Of a stretch of DNA of 27,612 bases, positions 2,601-26,980 are shown one piece after another; the stretch's first letter is position 1, and every line of letters starts with the position of its first letter. A program made the position numbers and the translations under genes. The notes under the pieces were generated by a model. It saw only the letters and a list, made by a program, of their open reading frames with translations, was not told the origin of the DNA and ran no database searches. The stretch lies in IMG/VR virus record IMGVR_UViG_3300032057_000005, positions 1 through 27,612 of that record. One strand, given 5' to 3'. The stretch is from a virus.

Positions 2601-2930
2601 ATGAGTCGAGGTTGCACGACGTCACGCGAGACGCTCGCGATGCTGTTCGCAGTGCTCGCCAACCGCGGGCGGAGCGTCGTCGCCTACTACGAGCGCGAGG
2701 ACACGATCGGGCTCGTGCTCGCGACTGGTCACGTCGTCGAGGCCGAACGGCGTCGCGCGCTCGCAGACCCGCATCGTCTCGCCGACTGTCTCGCAGCCTA
2801 CCTCCCACGACGTGTGCCAGCGATCGACTACGACCCGATGAAAGTCCCCGAGGTCAGTCCGCGCACGGCAGAGTGGTGGCTGTTTCTGCGCTGGTGTCAG
2901 CGTGAGCGGAAACTGGAGGTGCGCTCATGA
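2601..2930 (+). CDS. Unknown phage protein (109 aa)
   Basis: ATG 2601 lies three bases after the terL stop, with GGGGGTAAGGC as SD. The product is a small soluble alpha/beta-looking protein: a helix (SRETLAMLFAVLANRG), a short beta segment (SVVAYYEREDTIGLVLATGHVV) and an arginine-rich helical part. It ends with WWLFLRWCQRERKLEV, a tryptophan-rich C-terminus. No known family is recognised. Its stop overlaps the endolysin start as ATGA (2927-2930), which implies translational coupling. Its position between terminase and endolysin suggests a packaging or lysis accessory role, but nothing in the sequence proves it. Confidence 0.75.
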   Translation: MSRGCTTSRETLAMLFAVLANRGRSVVAYYEREDTIGLVLATGHVVEAERRRALADPHRLADCLAAYLPRRVPAIDYDPMKVPEVSPRTAEWWLFLRWCQRERKLEVRS

Positions 2931-4222
2931 CCATCACTCGTGACACGCTCGTGGTCGGAGTCCTCCCGCGCATCACTGCGCAGCGCTTCGAGGCGATTCT
3001 GCACGAGGCGCGGTCTCCTGCTGCGCAGGAGGCGCGCGCGTGCTGGCAAGCAGTGGCGAGCGAGGGTGCGGACCCCTTGTTCGCTCTTGCAGTGTTTCGT
3101 CACGAGTCGCGTTTCGGCACTGCTGGCATCGTCCCGGAGCACGATCTCAAGAACCCCGGGGCGACGCGCTCGAGCAGGACCGGCGTGGGCGAAGCAGTGA
3201 ACGTGCCCGGGCGCGGGCAGTTCTGGCGCTACCCGTCGTGGGCGGAGGGCTTTCGCGACCTCGCTCGTCGTCTCGTCGATCCGAGCTTCACCTATCGCCA
3301 GCGCAAGGCGTGGTCGGTCGCAGACATCGTCCCGATCTGGGCGCCAGCGAGCGACGGGAACAACCCGGCAAGTTATATCGACGCGGTCGTGCAGTTCATG
3401 AACCGATACGCAGAGCCAGAGATTGCCGGCGTGGTCTATCGCATCTCCTGGATACCTGCTTCGAACGCGAATCGTCCTGCCTATCCGATGCGCCCGAGCT
3501 GGATCACTGTGCACGAGACCGCGAACGAGAACGCGGGCGCGAACGCCGAGATGCATCGTCGTTTCGTCCACAACGGGGGCGGGCAGGAGCGGGTCAGCTT
3601 TCACTACGTCGTGGACGATCGCGAGGTGATCCAGCTCTTGCCGCTCGTCGAGAACGGCTGGCATGCGGGTGACGGTGCAAACGGGACAGGAAATCGCGCT
3701 TCGATCGGGATCGAGCTCTGCGTCAATCGCGACGGCGACTGGGAGCGCACGCAGGAGCACGGTGCACGACTGATCGCAACGCTCTGTCGTGCGCTCGATA
3801 TCTCGCTCGAGAAAGTGGTCCCGCATCGGCACTGGAGTGGCAAGCAGTGTCCACGACGGATCCTCGCGCAGGGGTTCGAGCAATATCGTGAGCGTGTACG
3901 GCGGTATCTCGCTGGAGGTGCAGTCATGAGCAGCGATGTCATCCGGCTCGGGCCACATGGGAAACGGGTCGGCCACGGGTTTCTTTCGCTCTGGCGTCAG
4001 CTCGAGCAGGCTGACCAGACGCTGCCACTCAGAGCCCTCGGCTGGCCGCTCACGGACGAGTTCGAGTACGAGGGGAACGTGTATCAGGTGTTCGAGCGGG
4101 TAGTCCTCAAATGGGCGCGGACCGAGCAACGCCCGTGGGACGTCCACGTCGCGCCATTGCACGAGGCGTGGTCAGTCCGTCTCGTCGCAGCACTGAGAGG
4201 ACTCATGCCGGGAGGAGAGTAA
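2927..4222 (+). CDS. Bifunctional endolysin: lysozyme-like domain plus N-acetylmuramoyl-L-alanine amidase plus C-terminal binding domain
   Basis: The 431-residue product has three parts. Residues about 35-162 look like a lysozyme/glucosaminidase fold: FRHESRFG places a catalytic-type glutamate at E60, followed by NPGA, a WRYPSWAEGFRDLA segment and a final helix. Residues about 185-315 are an Amidase_2/PGRP-type zinc amidase: ITVHETAN (H196), FHYVVDD, GWHAGDG, SIGIELC and PHRHWSGKQCPR (H300 or H302, C308) supply the zinc ligands. Residues 334-431 form a separate domain with GWPLTDEFE and YQVFERVVLKW, resembling LGFP/FERAR-type repeats and probably wall-binding. No signal peptide is seen, so a holin is needed; one is at 10419-10838. 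Placement between terminase and portal is unusual. An internal start lies at 3926. Confidence 0.9.
   Translation: MTITRDTLVVGVLPRITAQRFEAILHEARSPAAQEARACWQAVASEGADPLFALAVFRHESRFGTAGIVPEHDLKNPGATRSSRTGVGEAVNVPGRGQFWRYPSWAEGFRDLARRLVDPSFTYRQRKAWSVADIVPIWAPASDGNNPASYIDAVVQFMNRYAEPEIAGVVYRISWIPASNANRPAYPMRPSWITVHETANENAGANAEMHRRFVHNGGGQERVSFHYVVDDREVIQLLPLVENGWHAGDGANGTGNRASIGIELCVNRDGDWERTQEHGARLIATLCRALDISLEKVVPHRHWSGKQCPRRILAQGFEQYRERVRRYLAGGAVMSSDVIRLGPHGKRVGHGFLSLWRQLEQADQTLPLRALGWPLTDEFEYEGNVYQVFERVVLKWARTEQRPWDVHVAPLHEAWSVRLVAALRGLMPGGE
3914..3928 (+). promoter_or_regulatory. Internal ribosome-binding site and ATG inside the endolysin gene
   Basis: GGAGGTG at 3914-3920 is followed after a 7-base gap from GGAGG by the in-frame ATG 3926, which is residue M334. 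The match is as good as those of the true gene starts around it, and it falls exactly at the linker between the amidase and the C-terminal domain. Initiation here would give a 98-residue free C-terminal domain (3926-4222). Several endolysins are known to make such a product and assemble it with the full-length enzyme. Confidence 0.55.
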
Positions 4223-4225
4223 CGC

Positions 4226-5554
4226 ATGGCGATCTGGCCGTATCCACCCCCGACCGATCTTGGGTTTGCTGAAGCGCTCGCCGCGCAAGAGATCGCGCAC
4301 GCGGCGACGATCGCGCGACGCTGGGAGTACTATCTCGGCAAACACCCGCGGCAGCTGCGAGTGCGTCAAGGGCAACCCGATGACAATGTAATCGTCAACT
4401 TGTGCCGTGCAATCGTGGATAAAGGCGTGAGCTTTCTGTTCGGCAGTGATGTCGATTTCGAGCTTGTCGAGGGTGAGGCGACCGATGCTGAGGCTTGGCT
4501 CGACGCGTGCTGGGCTGCGAACAAAAAGCTGACGCTGCTCCAGAAACTTGCCCTGAGCGGCGCGATCGCAGGTCATGCGTTCGTGAAGATCGTCGTCGAT
4601 CCCGCGCGCGCGTACCCGCGCCTCGTCGTGCTCGACCCTGCGACTGTCGTCGTGAACGTGGCGCACGACGACCACGAGCGGGTACTCGGATATCGCGTGC
4701 AGTTCCCGACCGTCGACCCCGAAACGGGACGCCCGGTCGTGCTTCGTCAGACGATCGTTCCTGATGGCACACGATGGGTGATCCGCGACGAGAAGGCGTA
4801 TTCGGGCGATCGCTGGACCACCGTCTCGGAAACGGTTTGGCCCTACGAGTTCGCCCCGATCGTCGGTTGTCAGAACTTGCCTAATCCGCACGACTATTGG
4901 GGAGTGTCAGATCTAGAAGACGACGTGCTGCGCCTGAACGATGCAATCAATTTTTTGCTCTCAAATCTCGTCCGGATCGTCCGTTACCATGCGCATCCCA
5001 AAACATGGGGACGAGGATTCAGGGCAGATCAGCTCGATCTCTCGGTCGACGAGACGATCGTTCTCCCGTCGCCTGACGCCGAGCTCCGCAATCTCGAGAT
5101 GCAGAGCGACCTCGGTTCATCGATTCAGCTGTATCTTCGTCTCCGCGAGGCGTTCCACGAGATCGTGCGCATACCCGAGGTCGCGACCGGGCGCGTCGAA
5201 GGAGTGGGGTCCCTCTCCGGTATCGCGCTGCAGATCCTGTATCAGCCGCTCATCGAGAAGACGGAGACCAAGCGACGGCTTTACGGTGATCTTCTCGTCG
5301 AGCTGAATCGCAGGTTGCTCGCGATCGCAGGGTTTGGCGACGATCTGATGACAACGCTGCACTGGCCTGAGCTCATTCCGGGCGACCCGGACGCCGAAGC
5401 GAAGACTTTGATTATGTGGCAGCAACTGGGAGTATCCCAGGACACCATTCTGCGACGGCTGGGTCTCGACCCTGAGCTCGAACGAGAAAAGCGCAATATG
5501 TCCACTGGTGAAGCTACTCTCCGTGCGCTCGACACGATCCTCGGTGAGGAGTGA
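4226..5554 (+). CDS. Portal protein (SPP1 gp6-like)
   Basis: ATG 4226 follows GGAGGAGAGTAACGC. The 442-residue product fits the SPP1-type portal family in length and order. An N-terminal helical region contains RRWEYYLGKHP, followed by VNLCRAIVDKGVSFLFG, the usual start of the portal body. A central beta-rich clip/wing region (PRLVVLDPATVVVNVAHDD) follows, then a long helical crown and stem with EVATGRVEGVGSLSGIALQ. The C-terminus is glutamate- and arginine-rich. It would form the dodecameric DNA entry ring on the head, contacted by TerL on the outside and by the connector proteins after packaging. The MuF-type gene follows directly, as in SPP1-like modules. Confidence 0.88.
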   Translation: MAIWPYPPPTDLGFAEALAAQEIAHAATIARRWEYYLGKHPRQLRVRQGQPDDNVIVNLCRAIVDKGVSFLFGSDVDFELVEGEATDAEAWLDACWAANKKLTLLQKLALSGAIAGHAFVKIVVDPARAYPRLVVLDPATVVVNVAHDDHERVLGYRVQFPTVDPETGRPVVLRQTIVPDGTRWVIRDEKAYSGDRWTTVSETVWPYEFAPIVGCQNLPNPHDYWGVSDLEDDVLRLNDAINFLLSNLVRIVRYHAHPKTWGRGFRADQLDLSVDETIVLPSPDAELRNLEMQSDLGSSIQLYLRLREAFHEIVRIPEVATGRVEGVGSLSGIALQILYQPLIEKTETKRRLYGDLLVELNRRLLAIAGFGDDLMTTLHWPELIPGDPDAEAKTLIMWQQLGVSQDTILRRLGLDPELEREKRNMSTGEATLRALDTILGEE

Positions 5555-5556
5555 GC

Positions 5557-7269
5557 ATGAGCGTCGATCTCGACACGCTCGCACGGCGCTATGCTCGTGG
5601 AGTCCGCGAGCTGGACGTGAACGTGCTGCGCGCAGTCCTCGCGGCGTACCGGGAGACCGAGCAGGTCATCGTCGCGGAGTTTGAGCGACTCGACAACCAG
5701 GTACGCACGCTCCGCGAGCAGGGGATTGACGTCGACGTCGAGACGCTCATGGAACTCGACGAGTATCGGCGCCTCGTCGATGTCGTGCGCACCGCGATCA
5801 CGCAGTACGCGAACACGGTCGATGCGATCGTGCAGGGCAATGCACCACAAGCACTGTCGCTCGCTGCGCAGCACGCCCGCGATGCCGGCATCGAGCTCGC
5901 GTTCCAGGCGCACCACCCTGAGGCGCTCATCGCCGCGACAGCCGCGCTCGACCCCGAGAGCCCGCTCCTCAATGTACTGCGCACACGTGCGAGCGAGGCA
6001 TTTGCAGCAGACGAGGCTGAGCGCGCGGTCGCGAACGCACGACGAGCGCTCCTGACCGCAGTCGCGGCCGGCTGGCATCCGACGACGGCTGCGAAGCTGC
6101 TGCGCGAGGCGCTCGCGACATCGGCGTATCGTGCTCAGCGGATCGCGCGAACGGAGATCCTGCGCGCCTATCGTGCGGGAACGCTCGAGCTCTATCGCCA
6201 ATCGAATGTCGTCAAGCGGTGGAGGTGGGTGGCATCCCTCTCACGCAGGACGTGCGGGGCGTGTCTGGCCATGCACGGGCGCGAGTTCGACGTCGAGCGC
6301 GCTGTCTACGATCACCCGAATGGCCGCTGTGTCGTCGTCCCGATTACGGATGCGACGACGGGTGAGCTGGCGCGCGACACGACGCCGGATGCATGGCGCT
6401 GGTTCTGGGAGCAGCCGTTCGAGGTGCGCGACGCGATGCTCGGGCCTGCACTCCACGAGGCGCTCAGGCGCGGGTTCGTTGCATACAATGCTCTCGCTGA
6501 GTTGCAACGGACACCCTTCGGGGTCAGCGTACGGGCCGTGCCGCTCAAACGCATGTGGGGATTGTCCGTGTCGGAGCTTCTTAAGCTTGCTCGCGAGCGA
6601 AACATGTTGCCACGTGAGCGCCGACTCCTGCTTGAGCGAGCGGACGCCATAGCCGGATACCTTGAGCGCGTGATCGGCATCGGCGTCATCCGTCGTCGGT
6701 CGGACCTCCACGGTCTCGGCTGGAATGGGGAGATCGTATGGCAGGACGGACCCTATATCGCGGCGTACGATCCGCGACGCCAAAGGATCCTCGTCTCGCC
6801 GCAGCGATTGCACGCCGACGAGCCCTACAGTGTGCACGTCCTCGTACACGAGCTCCTGCATGCAGCGTCGGCTACGGGACGACAGGGTTCTAGCATGGAC
6901 GCCATGGCTCAGGAGGAGGCGTGGGCCGAAGCGTATGCGCACGTTGTCGTGCGTCGCCTCGTGCGTGACTCGCCGGCATTTCGATGGGTTGAGCTGGCTG
7001 AAATCGAGAGGCGTTGGGAGAGACATCCGTATCACCGGCTTACTGTTATCATGGAGCAAGCACGCGAGCTCGTGCGCAAAGAACCAGAAGAGTTCTATCG
7101 GCAACTTGCTCCTGTGCACGGATCGCTGCGCTGGGATACGATCGAGGGGTGGATCGCTGAGCGTTACCAGGGGCAAGCGCGCGAGCGACGAAAGCGGGAG
7201 TTGCGGAAGCTCAAGGATGCGCTCGAACTGGAGTTTACGATCGTTCGCTATCTTGGGGGCGAAGGATGA
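5557..7269 (+). CDS. MuF-type minor head protein fused to an HExxH metalloprotease-like domain
   Basis: The start is ATG 5557, after GGTGAGGAGTGAGC; a GTG at 5551 overlaps the portal stop. The N-terminal part is helical. Residues about 180-265 form a Phage_Mu_F domain: YRAQRIARTEILRAYRAG, then a W-rich segment, RTCGACLAMHGREF and HPNGRCVVVP, with conserved cysteines. Such proteins are minor capsid components next to the portal. Residues about 370-470 form a second domain with HVLVHELLHAAS (HELLH at 431-435, bases 6847-6861) and EEAWAEAYAH about 20 residues later, which matches a zincin HExxH plus downstream glutamate ligand. The last 100 residues are basic and helical. The protease could be a toxin or effector as in MuF polymorphic toxins, a head-maturation protease, or a host-entry factor; no other prohead protease is visible nearby. 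Confidence 0.85.
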   Translation: MSVDLDTLARRYARGVRELDVNVLRAVLAAYRETEQVIVAEFERLDNQVRTLREQGIDVDVETLMELDEYRRLVDVVRTAITQYANTVDAIVQGNAPQALSLAAQHARDAGIELAFQAHHPEALIAATAALDPESPLLNVLRTRASEAFAADEAERAVANARRALLTAVAAGWHPTTAAKLLREALATSAYRAQRIARTEILRAYRAGTLELYRQSNVVKRWRWVASLSRRTCGACLAMHGREFDVERAVYDHPNGRCVVVPITDATTGELARDTTPDAWRWFWEQPFEVRDAMLGPALHEALRRGFVAYNALAELQRTPFGVSVRAVPLKRMWGLSVSELLKLARERNMLPRERRLLLERADAIAGYLERVIGIGVIRRRSDLHGLGWNGEIVWQDGPYIAAYDPRRQRILVSPQRLHADEPYSVHVLVHELLHAASATGRQGSSMDAMAQEEAWAEAYAHVVVRRLVRDSPAFRWVELAEIERRWERHPYHRLTVIMEQARELVRKEPEEFYRQLAPVHGSLRWDTIEGWIAERYQGQARERRKRELRKLKDALELEFTIVRYLGGEG

Positions 7270-7457
7270 AAGAACGAGAACGCGTCGTCGAGCTGATCCG
7301 TCATGCGCTGGCGACACGACGTCGCGAGGCGATCGAGCGTGCGCTCGCTGCTGCACAGACGTATCTCGAGCAGAACACACAAGACTGGCAGGTCGCTGCA
7401 GCGTGCGAGCCGCTCTACATCGTGTCTGCGAGTCTTGACGATTCGCGCGTGAACTGA
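7266..7457 (+). CDS. Small protein of unknown function (63 aa), coupled to the MuF-protease gene
   Basis: ATG 7266 overlaps the stop of the MuF gene as ATGA. No strong SD of its own is seen beyond GGGGGCGAAGG. The product is mainly helical and arginine/alanine-rich (ERVVELIRHALATRRREAIE, then LAAAQTYLEQNTQDW), ending with PLYIVSASLDDSRVN. It has no recognisable family. Genes placed directly after polymorphic-toxin-like MuF genes are sometimes immunity genes; that is a positional guess here, and a minor structural or chaperone role is equally possible. The -35 of the next promoter overlaps its end. Confidence 0.6.
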   Translation: MKERERVVELIRHALATRRREAIERALAAAQTYLEQNTQDWQVAAACEPLYIVSASLDDSRVN

Positions 7458-7900: not shown

Positions 7901-8503
7901 ATGGTCGAGCGCGAGGGCCTGGTGCCCGAAGCTGAGGCGACCCAGGAGGTCGCAAACGAGCAGCCTCAAGCCGCGGAGGCTGCGGCTCACGACGCCCAGG
8001 AGGCGGACGACGAGCGATTCGATGCGGTGTACGTGCGACGTCTGCGCGCAGAAGCTGCCGAGTATCGTCGCAAGCTACGCGAGCTCGAGCGCGAGCTCAA
8101 ACAGCGCGACGAGGAGAAGCTGTCCGAGACAGAGCGGATGCGCCAACGGGTTTCGGAGCTCGAGCGAGAGCTTACGCAGCGAGAGCTGCTTATTCGCGAG
8201 CACACGCTGCGCTACGAGACGATGCTCCGTGCACGCGAGCTCGGGATCATCGATCCTGACGCGGCGTACCGCCTGCTCGATCTCGCTGAGGTCGAGTACG
8301 ACGAGTCGGGGAGACCAGCGAATATCGAGCGACTGCTGCGCGAGCTCGTCCGCAGGCGGCCGTATTTGGTCGGCAACTCGGCTTCTGCGACGAACCCGAG
8401 TCGCACGACAATCTCGCTCGAGGAGGCTGTCAAGTCGGGTGACCTCGAGGCGATCAATCGCGCTTTCGAAGCAGCCCTGCGCGCGACACAGCAGACACGA
8501 TGA
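7901..8503 (+). CDS. Probable scaffolding protein
   Basis: ATG 7901 follows GGAGGGTGATCG. The 200-residue product has an acidic, alanine- and glutamine-rich N-terminus and then a long coiled coil at about residues 45-103 (YVRRLRAEAAEYRRKLRELE and following heptads). It ends with a globular helical part containing ARELGIIDPDAAYRLLDL. This is the layout of GP20-type phage scaffolds, which sit just before the major capsid gene and guide its assembly into a prohead before leaving. No protease cleavage motif or embedded protease domain is evident, so release may occur without proteolysis. Confidence 0.85.
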   Translation: MVEREGLVPEAEATQEVANEQPQAAEAAAHDAQEADDERFDAVYVRRLRAEAAEYRRKLRELERELKQRDEEKLSETERMRQRVSELERELTQRELLIREHTLRYETMLRARELGIIDPDAAYRLLDLAEVEYDESGRPANIERLLRELVRRRPYLVGNSASATNPSRTTISLEEAVKSGDLEAINRAFEAALRATQQTR

Positions 8504-8512
8504 CGGAGGTGA

Positions 8513-9400
8513 ATGATGGCTGGTCCGGGAACACCACTTTTGAGCGAACCGACGATCTGGAGTGCGCGACTCCTCGCGAATCTCGACAAGACCTACGTCT
8601 ACGTCGCCGCGCTCACCAACCGAAACTACGAGGGTGAGGTCCGAGCAGGCGGCACGGTCAAGGCCTTTTGGGTCAGTGACGTAAACGTGTCCGACTACAC
8701 CGGCGGCTGGTCGGACAGCGACTGGCAGCTGCTCTCGGACAACGAGGTCACGATCCAGATCGACCAGCAGAAGAAGATCCTCGTCAAGGTACCCGACGTC
8801 AGGGCGCAGTTTTCTATCCTGAATTTGATCGAGCAGGCGAGCCAGCGCATGGCGGTCGCGATCGGTGACGCGATCGACCAGTACGTCGCATCGAAGTTCA
8901 GCGAGATCGCGACGAGCAACCAGTACGGCACGGATGCGGCACCGATCACGGTCGGGCTCGGTGCAGGCGAGGTGCGACCGACCACCGCGCTCGTCCGCGT
9001 GCGCGAGATTCTCGTAAACGCACGCGCCCCGATGACGAACCCACGCGTGGTCGTGCCGACCTGGTTCGCCACGATGCTCCAACTCGAGCTGGGCGGCCGT
9101 GCCACGCAACTCGGCGACCAGACCGTGCAGCAGGGACTCGTGCGTCCTGGGTTCATCGGCACATTCGAGGGCATGCAGATCTACGTGTCGCCGAACGTGC
9201 CGAACACGGGCGGGCAGAAGTTCAAGGTCATTGCCGGCGACCCGATGATCACCTACGCCAGCGCGATCGAGAAGGTCGAGACGATGCGTCTCCAGAACGA
9301 CTTCGCGACTGGCGTCAAGGCCCTCTACGTCTACGGGGCGAAATTGCCGCGAGGTCAGTATCTCGCACTGGGCACCTTCAACCCGGGCAGCTACGCGTGA
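8513..9400 (+). CDS. Major capsid protein
   Basis: ATG 8513 and ATG 8516 follow GACGGAGGTGA; either may be used. The 295-residue product fits the P22-like coat group with an HK97 fold. An N-terminal WSARLLANLDKTYVYVAALT stretch comes first, followed by VNVSDYTGG and a beta-rich DNEVTIQIDQQKKILVKVPD segment. The long spine helix (NLIEQASQRMAVAIGDAIDQ) comes next, then VRVREILVNARAPMTNPRVV with VPTWFATML, and the C-terminal A-domain strands (IGTFEGMQIYVSPNVP, ALYVYGAKL). The position after the scaffold and before the connector genes agrees. It forms the icosahedral shell. The length is normal and the N-terminus shows no long propeptide. Confidence 0.88.
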   Translation: MMAGPGTPLLSEPTIWSARLLANLDKTYVYVAALTNRNYEGEVRAGGTVKAFWVSDVNVSDYTGGWSDSDWQLLSDNEVTIQIDQQKKILVKVPDVRAQFSILNLIEQASQRMAVAIGDAIDQYVASKFSEIATSNQYGTDAAPITVGLGAGEVRPTTALVRVREILVNARAPMTNPRVVVPTWFATMLQLELGGRATQLGDQTVQQGLVRPGFIGTFEGMQIYVSPNVPNTGGQKFKVIAGDPMITYASAIEKVETMRLQNDFATGVKALYVYGAKLPRGQYLALGTFNPGSYA

Positions 9401-10066: not shown

Positions 10067-10422
10067 TGCTCAGCGCACAGGAACTGCAGCTTATCGCACG
10101 TGATCTCCTGCGCCTGCTACCAGAACGCGCGACGGTCGAGCGTGCGAGCGAGACGACCGACCGGTTCGGTGTTGTGCAGCACACGTACACGACTGTCGCG
10201 GCCGACGTCCCATGTCGCGTCGCGCCAGTCGAGACGGGCTACGACCCTGCGCGCGAGCAGATGAAGGTACGCGGCGACGTCACGCTCGTCCTGCCACGCG
10301 ATGTCGACGTGCGTGTGGGTGACATCGTTGCGCTCGGATCACGTCACTATCGCGTCGTCGAGATGAGTGAGCTCGGTACGGTCGGGTTTTTGCGACGAGT
10401 CGCAGCGGAGGCTGTACGATGA
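10063..10422 (+). CDS. Head-closure (stopper) protein
   Basis: ATG 10063 overlaps the connector stop and follows GAGGTGCAGGC. The 119-residue product is a small beta-barrel-type protein: LLPERATVERASETTDRFGV, ADVPCRVAPVET, DVTLVLPRDVDVRVGDIVAL and SRHYRVVEMSE. These segments match the head-closure/stopper family (SPP1 gp16-like, HK97 gp7-like) that seals the portal after packaging and forms the interface with the tail. The key pattern is the DVRVGDI turn followed by a YRVVEM strand. It is placed correctly after the adaptor. Its stop overlaps the holin start as ATGA. Confidence 0.72.
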   Translation: MMLSAQELQLIARDLLRLLPERATVERASETTDRFGVVQHTYTTVAADVPCRVAPVETGYDPAREQMKVRGDVTLVLPRDVDVRVGDIVALGSRHYRVVEMSELGTVGFLRRVAAEAVR

Positions 10423-10838
10423 ACGATCGTCACTGGTGGTCATTTGTGATCAGTACGATTACGGCAGCTAGCGCGCTACTTATGCGTATACCCATGGTCT
10501 TGCAAATACTGTTTGTGCTCATGTTTCTGGACTTGATACTCACAAGGTTTGTCGCAAGCAGCTGGCAAGAGCTTATGAAGCGTTTTACCAGAATGGTTGC
10601 CACGTGCGTGCTGCTAGCAGCACTCGGGGAAAGCGAACCAGTTCTTGGTTTTGCCGCCATGGAATACACGGCTGTGTTTTTCATCGTGAATGAGCTTATG
10701 GCGATTGCTGAAAAGGCTGCCCAACTGGGTGTACCTATACCGGAGCGCGTCAGACGCATGCTCGCTGCGCTGCGTGAGGAACGGAATGACCAGCCAGATC
10801 GTGCTAAAACTGAATCGAATACCGAAAATTCGCGCTGA
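10419..10838 (+). CDS. Holin (Phage_holin_4_1 / TcdE-like)
   Basis: ATG 10419 overlaps the preceding stop as ATGA. The 139-residue product has hydrophobic segments at about residues 6-22, 27-45, 58-70 and 77-93. Then comes FFIVNELMAIAEKAAQLGVP with IPERVRRMLAAL, the signature of the Phage_holin_4_1 family, where an (I/V)NE(G/L)(L/M)SI segment precedes LGVPIPEKL. A charged, soluble C-terminus follows. It would open the inner membrane so the endolysin (2927-4222) can reach the wall. Its codons are clearly richer in A and T than those of its neighbours, and it interrupts the usual connector/tail-completion order, both signs of later insertion. Confidence 0.85.
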   Translation: MNDRHWWSFVISTITAASALLMRIPMVLQILFVLMFLDLILTRFVASSWQELMKRFTRMVATCVLLAALGESEPVLGFAAMEYTAVFFIVNELMAIAEKAAQLGVPIPERVRRMLAALREERNDQPDRAKTESNTENSR

Positions 10839-16100: not shown

Positions 16101-16748
16101 CGTGCACGTGCTGTCGCCGAGACGACGAAGGACGTCATTGAGCTCGCTGCGAGTGCGCTCGACATGGCTGTTCGTTGGGCCGAGACGGGCGCTCAGGCGC
16201 GGCGCGTGTGGGACGACGCTGCGTCTTGGTTCAGCGACGTCGCGGAGACAGTTCTGGAAACGTTTTCGACGCTCGCTCGAGCGTTCGGGGAGGACGCACT
16301 CGAGAGCGTCGACCGCGTGGCCCAGGTCGTGCACGGCGTCGTCGAGGCGATGAGCGACGCGCTCGAGGCGATCGCGCGTTTCACAGATATGACGGAGCAG
16401 GTGCAGGTAATAAACGATCTCATCGAATGGTTCGTAGCGTTCAGTGACCGCTTCGTGCGCTCCATGGCGGGTGCGGCGATCCAGCTTGGATCGGCGCTCG
16501 ACGACGCACGACGGGCGGCGAGCACGGTCAGCGATATCGTCCGCGCACTAGAGGATGCGCTGAAAGCGATCGCTGAGGCCGGTACAGGCATCGCCGCACC
16601 CGCGCTCGTACCAGAGCAAGCGCCTACGGTCGTGACGGAAACCCTCACGCAACCGCCAACCGTGAACGTAGACGTGCGTGTGTATCTGGACGAGCGTGAG
16701 CTCAAAGGGCTCGTCAAGCAGGTCATCATGGAGGTGCTGACACGATGA
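13182..16748 (+). CDS. Tape measure protein
   Basis: The 1188-residue product is by far the longest of the tail genes, starting at ATG 13182 after AAGAGGGCGCAGTGAC. It begins with a VAELQVTIGADVAGAEKGLR segment typical of tape measures, followed by MVRAQLQAFTGSGEEAARIF. A hydrophobic middle at about residues 400-500 (AIAGVAAALGGLSIAGAGLS and onwards) would insert into the host membrane. Long helical coiled regions follow. Near residue 785-810 GIKSPSKVFFSIGIDVGEGL is the conserved SPS motif. The C-terminal third consists of degenerate 68-residue repeats. It sets the tail length. The N- and C-termini interact with chaperones and the tail tip. The gene overlaps its downstream neighbour as ATGA. 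Confidence 0.93.
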   Translation: MPLNVAELQVTIGADVAGAEKGLRSVEEGVKRVSGMGRLLDGVSSALRGVVQGFSQLGLAAMGVQSLTNALSGLTRSLFDTNASYEMVRAQLQAFTGSGEEAARIFAAIKDEAAKTPFAFSDMAKAAVMLIPSAKAAGKELSELIKTAEVLAALNPEQGLVGAAFALREALSGDFISLVERFNLPRQYINQLKAEGVPAMEIVNRVLQDMGASTELVGLMASTARGRWSTFVDVLSQVKAAALEALFQQLSGTLSDITGWLSENQPRFEDFAGLVGQKLASAFITARDAVMTLIQALTGNWQDAPGQIREVHRIFGGLGLTIRAIVIPALQAGRAALDSFLSGFRGEAGEGFFAKLGEGVRNTVVVIETNLPKAKQLLADIANTIKNEVVPAWDEFKVRAEPVINAISSRLPTLVPAIAGVAAALGGLSIAGAGLSTLLGPLLGITGALRGLTAITGIFGTIVGLLGGPVTAAILGVVAALGVGYLAWNQNWFGMRDTVSQFWTQVQPTIDGIKNGLINAWNQATPILQTVADAFTRIWNAVAPLAGEAIQSLISFGKQLVADWREWAKEVAPLAARAFENVKTAVMTVMGVILAVVLPALNAIINFFRRHSDELRTIVQSAWGVIKAVITLVMNTIQNIITIVLAIIAGDWRAAWEGMKRLVSEIWSGIKSIVTNVLNGLKAGLSIGLDALRDIASAAWDKLKELTQRAWNALTATISNAIEDIKTAISSIKDKILNALGRAKDWLVETGRDLIQGLIDGIRSMAQRVIDTITGIVTGAIDSAKRLLGIKSPSKVFFSIGIDVGEGLVRGLARVRDAVSEAAAGVGEATVAGVTRELERAQSAVNLLRDFASAVEQYLAIAERWSAVQRAGRRDWVVLFDLVEQLARGGIGAMVRVAREAGDEALEQASSALEATRSVIDVVDALLDLSERLRRGLPRVTFEPMFDWLSTFASSAVTSLDTVARVLGADALERARAVAETTKDVIELAASALDMAVRWAETGAQARRVWDDAASWFSDVAETVLETFSTLARAFGEDALESVDRVAQVVHGVVEAMSDALEAIARFTDMTEQVQVINDLIEWFVAFSDRFVRSMAGAAIQLGSALDDARRAASTVSDIVRALEDALKAIAEAGTGIAAPALVPEQAPTVVTETLTQPPTVNVDVRVYLDERELKGLVKQVIMEVLTR
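15711..16590 (+). repeat. Degenerate tandem repeat (about 68 residues) in the tape measure C-terminal region
   Basis: Repeat units begin near 15711 (AVNLLRDFASAVE), 15915 (ALEATRSVIDVVD), 16110 (AVAETTKDVIELA), 16314 (RVAQVVHGVVEAM) and 16524 (TVSDIVRALEDAL), with unit lengths of 68, 65, 68 and 70 codons; the fifth unit is partial. Each unit begins with a helix rich in V/A, then a middle with WF or W(x)xxF at about residue 35-45, and ends with a segment like ARxxGxDALExA. The repeats are clear at protein level and faint at DNA level, so they are old. Confidence 0.7.
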
Positions 16749-19700
16749 GTGTGCGCCTCGGTTTGAGTCACAATGCGCAGACAGTTTGGTTTGCGAACGA
16801 CCCCTGGTTCGTCCCTGAGCGTGGACTGCGGGTCGACTACGGTGATGACGAGCTGCGTTTTGTGATTACGCTCGCAGCGAAAGGTTCGCCGACGTCGCTC
16901 GCCAGCGCGTTGCGCAGCCTGCGATCGCTCGTGCGCGCGATCGATCGCGGGGGTGGATTGCTCCTCATCGACGACGGCGTCGACGTCGCGTCGTACCCGA
17001 TCCGCGACGCACAACTGCAGGAGCTACCCGAGCGACTCGAGCTCTGGCCGTCAGGGTATGCACGTGTGACACTCGTGCTGCGCTGCGACGCAGAGTCAGT
17101 TTTGTCCACAGCCACCACCCTCCTCGAGCAGCACGTGACGCAGACCGGCGAACCGGTCGTCGTCGATCCGGGTGGTCCAGCCGTGCTCGGCCTGGGTGTC
17201 GCGCCATACGACAAGCCGATGCCGGCTGCGATCGAGGCATACGTCATGGACGGACAGTACACGTCAGATGACCTCGTCGTGCCGCTTGGTGAACCACAGT
17301 ACGATAATGGCACATACATCTATGACGGTGACTATACGCCGACAGCAACCGAGGTAGACATGTACGCTGAGGTCGCGAGCCCAGCTGCGTTGCCGACAAC
17401 GGCTATTACTGGGGCCCAAGCAGTTCCACCCTATCGGCGCCTCGCCGCGCTCATCGAACCACCAGCCACGCTCGTCGGCGACTGGCAAGCAGGTGACTGT
17501 TTCCTGATTAATGCCAAATCTGTGCGGCAGCCGGGCTGGATGCACGACGGTGGTTATATGCATGCTGTGCAGCTATCGAGCGCAACAACGTCAATGTTGT
17601 TGCCGCCAGCGAGTTTGGTCGTGGCACTACGTGGCGCGACGCTCCTTGGAGTCATGCAGCGCTATTTGCGGCAGATTGATTCGACGTGGCCCAGCAACGG
17701 GATATTGACGTGCTCGCTCACGGTCACGTTGCCGAGCCTGCCATCCGGACATCGGTATGTCGTGTATGGCATTACAAGCGGCACTTTTTTCGTCGATACA
17801 ATAACTCGGCATATTCGCATTTATGGATTCCCCAACGTGCAGGCTCAGGGTCTCGCGGAAACTGGGTACATGCTGCCCTGGTCATCCGGTCAAGCCGTCG
17901 AGATGACCGGCACGAGTAACTCTGTGACATTCAGCTGGCGAGTCGGGCTGGATACAAAAATTCCTGACGATTTCGCGGCAGTCGTTAAGTCCATCTACGT
18001 CGAGCTCGCCGTTTTTGCCGTGCCCGATAGCGCGTTTTCGACGATACCTCAAGGCGACTATCGTGTCGCAATTGTCAGCTACCGAGTTACGACTCCCGTG
18101 ACGGTCGTTCATTACGACCAGTTCGTGCGTGTACTAAGCGGCTACCGTCTACGTGTTGATTTTGATTCACGCAATGCTGCACTCACGCATAAAGTGTTTA
18201 TTCAGCGTGTTGGCACAACACAGTGGTATAGCACGAGTGCCAGCCCCCCAAGCGTGACATTGAGTGCGCCTGGCACAGCAGAGAACCTGCCAGCGGTTAG
18301 TGGGGGTGGGCTACGCGAAACAATCACTGTCACTACTCGTCCTAGTGGCGTGCAGTACCCCGTACAGGAGCGATCGACCGCGTATGTGACAGGTGGGAGA
18401 AAACTCGTTCCCGTTGGCCGCCTCAGTTTTCACGCACGAGAGCACTACGCGGTACGGTTAACCTCACGACAACCTGTGCGTCGGCTCTGGGCATTGCCGA
18501 GGCCTCGCGCAGCCGTCGCGGGAGCATACGTCCCTGCCAGCGCTCTGCTCGAGTCAGCTCGCGACCAAGGCCGGCAGGTCGTGCGTGTCATCAATAGCCT
18601 GCAGGCTCAGCAGGTAACTGTTGAGAACACTAGTTATACACGCCCCTGGTTTATGCTTTATACCGCAAGTAATTCGGCCAATACACAGTATGTTGTTGCG
18701 ACGCTTGAGGATGGGTCTGGTTTTGTGAGCCCAGCCATCACTGCGAGCCCTCTCATTGTGACGCATCCAGTTCTCAATATACCGTTGGTTGCGGTGTCTC
18801 TCTCCGCCAGCCGTGTGCCAATCGCGTATTATCATGAGTCGAGCAACCTGACGTCAGGTCGGACGATTAAGGCGATTGTCTATTTTTACAACGCGAGTAC
18901 GACAAATCGCACAGTAACTGTCTATTTGGAAGACAACCGAACTTCTGGCTGGCAGGAAACGTCAACGACAGTAACTGTGCCGGCACAGGGTTATACCTCG
19001 ACCTCATTGCAGCTTACGCTCAATACATCCGTGCAGGCACTCGCGGTCTCCCTGACTGGCTCGAGTGGGATTATCGTGTATGCGAACGTCGTCTGGGTGC
19101 AGGGTCCGTGGGCCGACATTCCACTTCGACAGTCGTACTACGATGACGACTGGGTTGTGTTTGAAAATGCGCGATATGCAGGACCTCGGTTGTTTGGTTG
19201 GAATGTTACGCAGAAGAACCTGCCAGCTCAGTATCCCTCGACATCTCATTGGGCAAGAACATTTTCGTATTCATTTACTAATAGTGATCCAATTAACACC
19301 TACTACTATACCGTTGTCAGCAACCGATATCTTCTGCGACAAGGGAAGACCTACCAGTGGGACTATAGTGCTTCTGCACCAAGCGGATATACAGTGTATG
19401 TGAGGCTCGGTATTCCAAGTAACTTTGTGTGGAATGGAGCCCCATATACACCGCTTAACGATACTGCTTGTGGTTTTATGATGACTATCGAGAAAAATAC
19501 GTCTAGTGGCGGTACTGTGACCGCTTCGTGGTCGAGCTTAAGACGTGCGGGCAGTGATACGCTTGCCACAATGGACACAGCCCCCCACAATGCCATTAGA
19601 CTTGGTTGGCCGCAGTCTGCCTCATCCTGGCTGATCGCGACACGAATCGTGTACCGGCACGATGTCGTGACGGGCAGGTTCATGCGAGTCACATTTGCCT

Positions 19701-20251
19701 CGGGTGACCCGCTCGACGTCGAGTTCTCTAATTCGGATATTCTGGCCAAGCGTGGCTCAACGACGCTCCTGACCCTTGTTCGCCCCTCCACGAGCCCAAC
19801 TACACTACGTCTCAGTTACGCCTCGGGGACGCTGTCCCTCTCAGTTGGACAGCCAGGCAGCTGGTCCAGTGTGTCAACGAGCGTGAGCCTGCCGGACATT
19901 CAGGATTCTGTCGAGCTCGACGGTTCTCAAACAGGCGGTGAGTGGGGTATACGCTGGCTTGGTCTCGTGGTTAACCCCTCGGCTGCGCTTCTCGCAGGCA
20001 CACCACCGCTGCTTAATTCAAATATTGGTGCCTATAATGTGTTTGTTAACGAGGCATCATACGCCTACTGGTGGGCAGACGAACCGTACTACGTGTATCG
20101 GCCTGGGAACCTCGTGCTTGGTGCGCAGCGCGGCGTGCTCGAGGTCTCGGGCAAGTGCACACTGGTCGTGTTTCCGATCTCGAGCATCGAGACGAGGGAC
20201 ATCGTCGATCGTGCGTTCGTTCTGGACGTGCTCGGGTACGAGAAACGATGA
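16745..20251 (+). CDS. Large tail-tip / receptor-binding protein (distal-tail-like N-terminus)
   Basis: ATG 16745 overlaps the tape measure stop as ATGA. The 1168-residue product lies where siphoviruses encode the distal tail protein. Its first about 190 residues (RLGLSHNAQTVWFANDPWFV, TLAAKGSPTSLASALRSLRS, ELPERLELWPSGYARVTLVL) suit a Dit-like or tail-tip adapter. The rest is a series of beta-sandwich-looking segments rich in S, T, Y and V with many possible carbohydrate-binding modules. The last about 60 residues return to high-GC coding. From about 17.5 to 20.05 kb the codons are clearly A/T-richer than in flanking genes. No catalytic motif is recognised. It is likely the receptor-binding protein, as no further tail fibre gene follows. 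Confidence 0.65.
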   Translation: MSVRLGLSHNAQTVWFANDPWFVPERGLRVDYGDDELRFVITLAAKGSPTSLASALRSLRSLVRAIDRGGGLLLIDDGVDVASYPIRDAQLQELPERLELWPSGYARVTLVLRCDAESVLSTATTLLEQHVTQTGEPVVVDPGGPAVLGLGVAPYDKPMPAAIEAYVMDGQYTSDDLVVPLGEPQYDNGTYIYDGDYTPTATEVDMYAEVASPAALPTTAITGAQAVPPYRRLAALIEPPATLVGDWQAGDCFLINAKSVRQPGWMHDGGYMHAVQLSSATTSMLLPPASLVVALRGATLLGVMQRYLRQIDSTWPSNGILTCSLTVTLPSLPSGHRYVVYGITSGTFFVDTITRHIRIYGFPNVQAQGLAETGYMLPWSSGQAVEMTGTSNSVTFSWRVGLDTKIPDDFAAVVKSIYVELAVFAVPDSAFSTIPQGDYRVAIVSYRVTTPVTVVHYDQFVRVLSGYRLRVDFDSRNAALTHKVFIQRVGTTQWYSTSASPPSVTLSAPGTAENLPAVSGGGLRETITVTTRPSGVQYPVQERSTAYVTGGRKLVPVGRLSFHAREHYAVRLTSRQPVRRLWALPRPRAAVAGAYVPASALLESARDQGRQVVRVINSLQAQQVTVENTSYTRPWFMLYTASNSANTQYVVATLEDGSGFVSPAITASPLIVTHPVLNIPLVAVSLSASRVPIAYYHESSNLTSGRTIKAIVYFYNASTTNRTVTVYLEDNRTSGWQETSTTVTVPAQGYTSTSLQLTLNTSVQALAVSLTGSSGIIVYANVVWVQGPWADIPLRQSYYDDDWVVFENARYAGPRLFGWNVTQKNLPAQYPSTSHWARTFSYSFTNSDPINTYYYTVVSNRYLLRQGKTYQWDYSASAPSGYTVYVRLGIPSNFVWNGAPYTPLNDTACGFMMTIEKNTSSGGTVTASWSSLRRAGSDTLATMDTAPHNAIRLGWPQSASSWLIATRIVYRHDVVTGRFMRVTFASGDPLDVEFSNSDILAKRGSTTLLTLVRPSTSPTTLRLSYASGTLSLSVGQPGSWSSVSTSVSLPDIQDSVELDGSQTGGEWGIRWLGLVVNPSAALLAGTPPLLNSNIGAYNVFVNEASYAYWWADEPYYVYRPGNLVLGAQRGVLEVSGKCTLVVFPISSIETRDIVDRAFVLDVLGYEKR

Positions 20252-26548: not shown

Positions 26549-26980
26549 ATGGACGAGCGGCTCTACCGCGACCTTCTCGAGCACGCCCAACGCGCATCCT
26601 GGAGGTTGGCCGGACTTGTCGATCCCGAAGACGTCGTGCACGACGCATATTTGCGAGTGGTAAAGAGCGGGCGTGAGATCACGCCCGCTCTCTTGCATCG
26701 TGCGGTTAACTCCGTCATCGTGGACACGGTCCGTCGCGCCAGCCGCCGCCCAGCGTCGCTAGCGTTGGAGGAGTGGGCGCTAGACGAGCATGCGGACGTC
26801 GAGCGGGAGGCACTCACGGCGGTCATGGCGCAGGAGATCCTCGCAGCGCTGGGCGATCTCGCCTCGACGGCGATCGCGATCGCCGAGGGAGAGTCGTTGA
26901 ACGCGGTGGCTCGACTCGAGCGGCGCCCGAAGGCGACGTGGTGGAGAAGGCTGCGGGCTTTGCGCGAGGTCTATCGGTGA
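26549..26980 (+). CDS. ECF-like RNA polymerase sigma factor
   Basis: ATG 26549 lies next to the preceding stop, with GGGCGAGCTGAGCGACTGAG upstream. The 143-residue product has a region-2-like N-terminus (YRDLLEHAQRASWRLAGLVD, PEDVVHDAYLRVV at residues 26-38, which matches the region 2.2 polymerase-binding helix; then ALLHRAVNSVIVDTVRRASR, region 2.3/2.4). A linker follows, then a region-4 HTH at about residues 95-140 (GESLNAVARLERRPKATWWR). It would redirect host RNA polymerase to phage promoters. It lies in the early/middle block, while a region-4 fragment lies just before the late genes at the left edge. A palindrome sits in its coding sequence at 26664-26691. Confidence 0.8.
   Translation: MDERLYRDLLEHAQRASWRLAGLVDPEDVVHDAYLRVVKSGREITPALLHRAVNSVIVDTVRRASRRPASLALEEWALDEHADVEREALTAVMAQEILAALGDLASTAIAIAEGESLNAVARLERRPKATWWRRLRALREVYR
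26664..26691 (+). repeat. Intragenic perfect palindrome (13 bp arms) in the sigma-factor gene
   Basis: AGAGCGGGCGTGA (26664-26676) and TCACGCCCGCTCT (26679-26691) are exact reverse complements around a GA centre. It lies fully in coding sequence (VVKSGREITPALL), with no T-run behind it, so it is neither an ordinary terminator nor at a gene border. Confidence 0.65.

What the first reader, a model, noticed from the sequence alone, without database searches (positions are those of the whole stretch)
5557..7269. MuF minor head protein fused to an HExxH metalloprotease-like domain
The sequence shows a Phage_Mu_F domain at about residues 180-265 and, about 170 residues later, HELLH with EEAWAEAYAH following, a zincin-like arrangement, then a basic helical tail. 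Established knowledge: temperate phages encode MuF proteins with C-terminal toxin domains, described as polymorphic toxins carried in the head. Inference: this could be an injected effector, a head-maturation protease (none else is visible near scaffold and capsid), or a peptidase used during entry. Protein delivery with DNA is the more exciting option.
Basis: partly seen in the sequence, partly recalled or inferred. Interest (0 to 1): 0.7.

Follow-up and report, generated by a model that had tools for sequence, protein, structure and literature searches.

The report
Phage head protein carrying a metalloprotease
A phage head protein that normally sits inside the capsid carries a metal-dependent protease domain at its end, most likely cargo injected with the phage DNA; this belongs to an already described class of phage-carried effectors, with a divergent protease and a paired small gene worth testing.

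Summary
Window 5557-7269 (+) encodes a 570-aa MuF-type minor head protein (PF04233, residues 162-259, above cut-off). Its C-terminal ~230 residues are a divergent gluzincin: HELLH (431-435), then invariant Glu453-Glu454 on the next helix, with the same catalytic residues in eight domains (down to 38% identity). An AlphaFold model (pLDDT 89, pTM 0.89) has the zincin core, and all 50 best structural alignments are gluzincins (Z up to 11.6). Best-supported role: a capsid-packaged, host-directed peptidase with a cognate small partner gene (63 aa, 7266-7457). That gene is in all seven zincin-bearing contigs that reach it and in none of three sister contigs whose MuF lacks the zincin. Protease and partner diverge fast (39-55% and 33-54% identity) while capsid and portal stay at 87-94%. 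Sister phages with related scaffold and coat have MuF without the zincin, so a head-maturation protease is unlikely, though not excluded. MuF-metallopeptidase fusions followed by a small ORF are already described (Jamet 2017; Iyer 2017). Departures: below the Pfam MPTase-PolyVal cut-off, a standalone copy in one relative, and no integrase found. Delivery, proteolysis, toxicity and immunity are untested inference.

The parts
5557..7269 (+). minor head protein, MuF type, with C-terminal gluzincin domain (570 aa)
6040..6333 (+). Phage_Mu_F domain, residues 162-259
   Evidence: PF04233 E 1.2e-12
6580..6966 (+). zincin core, residues 342-470: N-terminal helix, three short strands, HELLH helix, Glu helix
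   Evidence: AlphaFold model of 342-570, pLDDT 89.3; VIA-align to gluzincins
6847..6861 (+). HELLH, residues 431-435 (two predicted zinc ligands and general base)
   Evidence: invariant HExLH in 8 domains; position
6913..6924 (+). EEAW, residues 453-456; E453 or E454 is the predicted third zinc ligand (E454 at HExxH-X18-E)
   Evidence: E453, E454 and A455 invariant in 8 domains; spacing
7024..7032 (+). HPY, residues 490-492: invariant motif after the core, possible further catalytic or substrate-binding residues (inference)
   Evidence: invariant in 8 domains
6997..7266 (+). helical, basic C-terminal tail, residues 481-570
   Evidence: helices in model
7266..7457 (+). 63-aa ORF overlapping the muf stop codon (ATGA); candidate cognate partner (inhibitor or immunity protein)
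   Evidence: found in 7 contigs with the zincin and in none of 3 with a zincin-less MuF; no Pfam match
4226..5554 (+). portal protein (context: SPP1 gp7 is targeted to the procapsid by the portal)
   Evidence: phrog_64 5.3e-30
7901..8503 (+). scaffolding protein (context)
   Evidence: PF06810 5.8e-10
8513..9400 (+). major capsid protein (context)
   Evidence: phrog_267 2.4e-35; PF25209

Best explanation
The protein is a MuF minor head protein whose MuF part, by analogy with SPP1 gp7, is drawn into the procapsid by the portal and carries a C-terminal zinc peptidase of the gluzincin type as cargo. The peptidase enters the host with the DNA and cuts one or more host proteins (defence or regulatory). 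The 63-aa gene overlapping the stop codon makes a small helical protein that most likely holds the peptidase in check in the producing cell (inhibitor or immunity protein). Shown here: domain make-up, conserved catalytic set, modelled fold, purifying selection, co-occurrence of the small gene, fast divergence of the pair. Inferred: packaging, injection, proteolysis, the target, and the role of the small gene.
For: MuF domain above cut-off. Catalytic residues invariant down to 38% identity. Confident model with helix, three strands, HELLH helix and Glu helix, the core described for polyvalent-protein MPTases (PMC5512222). The 50 best VIA-align rows are all gluzincins (M1, LTA4H, thermolysin group, DPP III), Z up to 11.6, aligned over most of the domain. 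Top Foldseek hits are ArdC and proabylysin, not significant. dN/dS 0.16-0.18 in the zincin part for window-L004 and L002-L004. The small ORF is in all 7 zincin-bearing contigs that extend past muf and in 0 of 3 contigs with zincin-less MuF. Zincin core 39-55% and small ORF 33-54% identical while MCP is 92-94%, portal 87-88% and scaffold 77-84%: the pattern expected of a conflict effector and its partner. Related phages have MuF with a different C-terminal extension (L012) or none (L011, L013). Precedents: MuF toxins, 20% of 191 with a metallopeptidase domain, 89% followed by a small ORF (PMC5576092); Bxa and Apk2 MuF toxins with adjacent immunity genes (PMC11699363); SPP1 gp7 targeted to the procapsid interior by the portal and dispensable for assembly (PMC6316719).
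Against: No experiment shows packaging, injection, proteolysis or toxicity. Every contig found in which this capsid protein is seen (six) has the zincin, so no cargo swapping was seen at close range; the relatives without it have distant MuF parts (28-29% identity) and different coat proteins. The MuF N-terminal part also diverges fast in G002 (38%), so rapid change is not special to the zincin there. MuF toxins were described only from temperate phages, and no integrase was found here. The co-occurrence rests on few, related contigs.
Confidence: 0.52

Rival explanations
1. Self-processing protease: the zincin cuts its own fusion protein, or another virion protein, inside the capsid or after entry, releasing MuF or the tail for another job.
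For: Iyer et al. propose autoproteolysis for MPTase domains in polyvalent proteins, citing P1 DdrB processing (PMC5512222). The basic helical tail after the core could be a released product. L008 has a standalone copy of the domain.
Against: Linker and tail diverge and no conserved cleavage site was identified. A cognate small gene is not obviously needed for self-processing.
Confidence: 0.17
2. Head-maturation protease acting on scaffold or capsid proteins during assembly.
For: Gene lies between portal and scaffold. No S78 protease in the six records searched and no peptidase family among the other window proteins scanned. Every contig in which this capsid protein is seen has the zincin.
Against: L012 and L013 have a related scaffold (38% identity for L012) and P22-like coat proteins, with MuF but no zincin anywhere on the contig. 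The nearest MuF in a complete phage genome, Mae-JY09, is 361 aa and ends soon after the MuF domain. SPP1 procapsids need only portal, scaffold and MCP, and the scaffold simply leaves (PMC6316719). Zincin 39-55% identical against candidate substrates at 77-94%.
Confidence: 0.12
3. Entry peptidase acting on the cell envelope to help DNA pass.
For: SPP1 virions lacking gp7 are only about 25% infectious (PMC6316719), so MuF proteins support the start of infection.
Against: MuF proteins lie inside the head. The structural neighbours are protein and peptide hydrolases, not cell-wall peptidases. No transmembrane or cell-wall-binding part was noticed.
Confidence: 0.09
4. Catalytically inert zincin scaffold kept for DNA or portal binding.
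For: No activity is known; the tail is basic (sequence).
Against: All catalytic positions are invariant while the rest of the domain drops to 38% identity.
Confidence: 0.05

Closest known systems
MuF polymorphic toxins (Jamet et al. 2017, PMC5576092; Bxa and Apk2, PMC11699363)
   Same: N-terminal MuF domain, C-terminal enzymatic extension, small ORF immediately downstream; a metallopeptidase extension is among those reported.
   Different: The extension is a divergent gluzincin below Pfam cut-offs; no integrase found; no toxicity or immunity data; no cargo swap seen among the closest relatives.
MPTase-PolyVal zincins of phage and plasmid polyvalent proteins (PF18818; ArdC; Iyer et al. 2017, PMC5512222)
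   Same: Core of helix, three strands, HExxH helix and Glu helix; best but sub-threshold Pfam match in 4 of 7 members.
   Different: Scores 17.4 bits against the 27.5 cut-off; long helical C-terminal extension; HExxH-X18-E spacing in the window protein.
M1 aminopeptidases, LTA4 hydrolase and thermolysin (gluzincins)
   Same: Structural alignment Z 8.5-11.6 over about 175-200 residues; HExxH-X18-E in the window copy.
   Different: 8-16% identity; no GxMEN exopeptidase motif in the sequence; much smaller; virion context.
SPP1 gp7 and short MuF proteins such as that of Microcystis phage Mae-JY09 (PP395641)
   Same: Same gene position between portal and scaffold; 36% identity over residues 172-330.
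   Different: They end soon after the MuF domain (361 aa in Mae-JY09).

Membership tests
Phage_Mu_F / SPP1 gp7-type minor head protein | domain score above the curated cut-off | tested here: met
   PF04233 49 bits against 29.6; TIGR01641 50.1 against 39.65
Phage_Mu_F / SPP1 gp7-type minor head protein | gene between portal and scaffold/capsid | tested here: met
   portal 4226-5554, scaffold 7901-8503, MCP 8513-9400
MuF polymorphic toxin | C-terminal enzymatic extension after the MuF domain | tested here: met
   zincin domain 342-570
MuF polymorphic toxin | small ORF immediately downstream | tested here: met
   63-aa ORF overlapping the stop codon, conserved with the zincin
MuF polymorphic toxin | exchangeable C-terminal domains on related MuF parts | tested here: inconclusive
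   other extension in L012, none in L011/L013, but those MuF parts are distant and all 8 close relatives, window included, keep the zincin
MuF polymorphic toxin | carried by temperate phages | tested here: inconclusive
   no PF00589 or PF00239 match in the window or the sister contigs searched, including near-complete G002; contigs may be incomplete
MuF polymorphic toxin | toxic in the host and neutralised by the downstream protein | not testable with these tools
   needs expression experiments
Gluzincin peptidase | HExxH plus Glu on the following helix, conserved among homologues | tested here: met
   invariant in 8 domains
Gluzincin peptidase | zincin fold | tested here: met
   model pLDDT 89.3; 50 of 50 best VIA-align rows are gluzincins, Z to 11.6; Foldseek E-values not significant
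Gluzincin peptidase | zinc binding and proteolysis | not testable with these tools
   needs purified protein
MPTase-PolyVal (PF18818) | score above the curated cut-off | tested here: not met
   17.4 bits against 27.5
Peptidase M1 (PF01433) | score above the curated cut-off | tested here: not met
   P0004 matches at E 0.074 with 13.1 bits against 27.7; 1 of 7 domain members at E 0.013
Head-maturation protease | required with the related scaffold/coat pair | tested here: not met
   L012 and L013 have the pair and MuF without zincin; incomplete contigs could hide another protease
Head-maturation protease | processing of capsid or scaffold proteins | not testable with these tools
   needs virion mass spectrometry

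The most novel reading that the evidence does not exclude
A separate gluzincin family carried by the heads of small phages without a detectable integrase, injected to cut a host defence or regulatory protein, and restrained in the producing cell by a dedicated 63-68-aa inhibitor that co-diversifies with it. This would extend MuF cargo from temperate to non-integrating phages and give a new protease-inhibitor pair.
Probability: 0.2. Interest if true: 0.6.

Novelty: new member of a known kind. Interest (0 to 1): 0.38.

Why it matters
MuF fusions are among the few plausible routes by which siphophages carry enzymes into the host with their DNA. Metallopeptidase fusions were counted in 2017, but none of the papers read here reports an assay of one; the characterised MuF toxins named there are Apk2 and Bxa (PMC11699363). 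Here the catalytic set, a confident fold and a linked small gene give a compact, testable pair, and the near-constant capsid around it makes the fast divergence of the pair stand out.

Tried and rejected
Single-sequence AlphaFold of the whole protein was poor (pLDDT 43) and was not used; a seven-sequence domain alignment solved this. The first genome-contig scan found no relatives. The second found only archaeal proteins that look SprT-like, with a C-terminal zinc ribbon and about 31% identity around the HExxH motif; I take these as distant zincins, not orthologues. tblastn of the C-terminal domain in sequenced phages gave nothing significant, and plasmids matched only the MuF part. PDB sequence search gave no significant match. 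PHROG 'head maturation protease' (phrog_595) matches only the MuF region 139-274, so that label is not evidence for a protease. The Microbacterium phage Schubert annotation 'capsid maturation protease and MuF-like fusion' proved to be MuF plus ART-PolyVal. E458 was considered as the third ligand and dropped because it is not invariant. Absence of integrase matches was not taken as proof of a lytic lifestyle.

Full report
Observation. Window 5557-7269 (+) encodes a 570-aa protein with a MuF domain at residues 162-259 (PF04233, E 1.2e-12; TIGR01641). It lies between a portal gene (4226-5554) and a scaffold (7901-8503, PF06810) and major capsid gene (8513-9400, PF25209). HELLH is at 431-435. In shuffled copies of the protein HExxH appears in 3.9% and HExxH plus a suitably spaced Glu in 2.5%, so the motif alone proves little.

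Relatives. The full protein found one relative at 92% (L002) and its C-terminal part one more (L004, 80% over the domain, 88% over the protein). Going through the terminase and the zincin alignment gave further contigs: L008, L010, L023, L024 and the L009 record (G002). All carry a MuF-zincin. L008 also has a standalone 231-aa copy of the domain whose start codon overlaps the MuF stop codon. Across eight domains (the other seven 38-88% identical to the window's), H431, E432, L434, H435, A436, E453, E454, A455, H490, P491 and Y492 are invariant; E458 is not.

Fold. An AlphaFold model of residues 342-570 on a seven-sequence alignment has mean pLDDT 89.3 and pTM 0.89: long helix, three short strands, HELLH helix, Glu helix, then a helical tail. 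This is the core described for polyvalent-protein metallopeptidases. Foldseek ranks ArdC and proabylysin near the top without significance. VIA-align gives only gluzincins in its 50 best rows, Z 8.5-11.6 over about 175-200 residues. Pfam MPTase-PolyVal is the best family match but below its cut-off (17.4 against 27.5 bits; 4 of 7 members show it).

Selection and recombination. dN/dS in the zincin part is 0.16-0.18 for window-L004 and L002-L004. Nucleotide identity along the gene is mosaic: window and L002 are 99-100% identical over residues 241-450 but 69-96% elsewhere, while window and L004 are 98-99% identical over 481-540. This indicates recombination within the gene, with one switch close to the end of the zincin core.

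Which role. (a) Sister contigs L011-L013, with terminase 69-72% identical, carry MuF without the zincin (L011 370 aa, L013 363 aa) or with an unrelated extension (L012, 537 aa), and the zincin is absent from their whole records. L012 has a homologous scaffold (38%) and a weakly similar coat (24%); L012 and L013 coats are P22-like. L013's coat did not align with the window's by BLASTP, but both match PF25209. Thus this head type can do without the zincin. (b) SPP1, the model for this gene order, builds procapsids from portal, scaffold and MCP; its gp7 is dispensable, is drawn inside by the portal, and helps the start of infection (PMC6316719). (c) Between the window and L008, L024 and G002, the zincin core is 39-55% and the small ORF 33-54% identical, while MCP is 92-94%, portal 87-88% and scaffold 77-84%. 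A protease tied to near-constant substrates would not be expected to change this fast; a host-directed effector and its partner would. The MuF N-terminal part changes at intermediate or, in G002, equal speed. (d) The 63-aa ORF overlapping the muf stop codon is present in all seven zincin-bearing records that extend past muf and in none of the three records with zincin-less MuF. These records are related, so the count is not a set of independent events.

Comparison with the known. Jamet et al. describe MuF toxins: 13% of MuF proteins have a toxin domain, 20% of those 191 a metallopeptidase, and 89% are followed by a small ORF (PMC5576092). Iyer et al. describe zincins as the commonest domain of polyvalent proteins and MuF as one of their hubs (PMC5512222). 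Two MuF toxin types, Apk2 and Bxa, have tested immunity genes (PMC11699363). The present protein has the same anatomy, so it is a new member of a known kind, with a divergent peptidase. It departs in lifestyle evidence: no tyrosine or serine integrase was found in the window or in the sister contigs searched. G002 (26.8 kb) is close to complete, because its two ends lie in the same portal gene about 10 codons apart, judged by the window's portal sequence.

What is shown and what is not. Shown by computation: domains, conserved catalytic residues, modelled fold, purifying selection, mosaic recombination, co-occurrence and fast divergence of the small gene. Inferred: packaging by MuF, injection, proteolysis, host target, and inhibition by the small protein. 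The head-maturation and self-processing readings remain possible at lower weight.

Noticed in passing
L008 12967-13662: Standalone 231-aa copy of the zincin domain directly after the MuF-zincin gene (TGATG overlap) and before the small ORF; keeps HELLH and EEAW but not the last Glu of the window's motif.
   Followed up: partly
L029 2201-3346 (Microbacterium phage Schubert gene 4): Annotated 'capsid maturation protease and MuF-like fusion protein', but the C-terminus is an ADP-ribosyltransferase domain (PF18760, E 3e-12); the label looks wrong.
   Followed up: partly
L012 3811-5720: MuF protein with a different C-terminal extension of about 190 residues without Pfam match, followed by an overlapping 106-aa ORF; looks like another cargo-partner pair.
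   Followed up: partly
L013 8712-9462: After a short MuF, two extra ORFs (148 and 108 aa) without convincing family matches, possibly a detached cargo and partner.
   Followed up: partly
window 5557-7269: Recombination mosaic: 99-100% nucleotide identity to L002 over residues 241-450 only, and 98-99% to L004 over 481-540 only.
   Followed up: yes
window 2927-4222 and 10419-10838: Amidase endolysin lies between terminase and portal, and a holin-like gene (PF05105) among the head-tail joining genes; unusual spread of lysis genes. In L011-L013 the portal follows the terminase directly.
   Followed up: partly
L009 / L034 (record G002): 26.8-kb contig whose two ends lie about 10 codons apart in the same portal gene: probably a near-complete, circularly permuted genome.
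   Followed up: partly
window 26549-26980: 143-aa protein with a weak sigma-70 region 2 match (E 0.043, below cut-off), a possible phage sigma-like factor.
   Followed up: partly
window 16745-20251: 1168-aa protein with no Pfam match, between the tape measure gene and a 356-aa gene also without a match.
   Followed up: no
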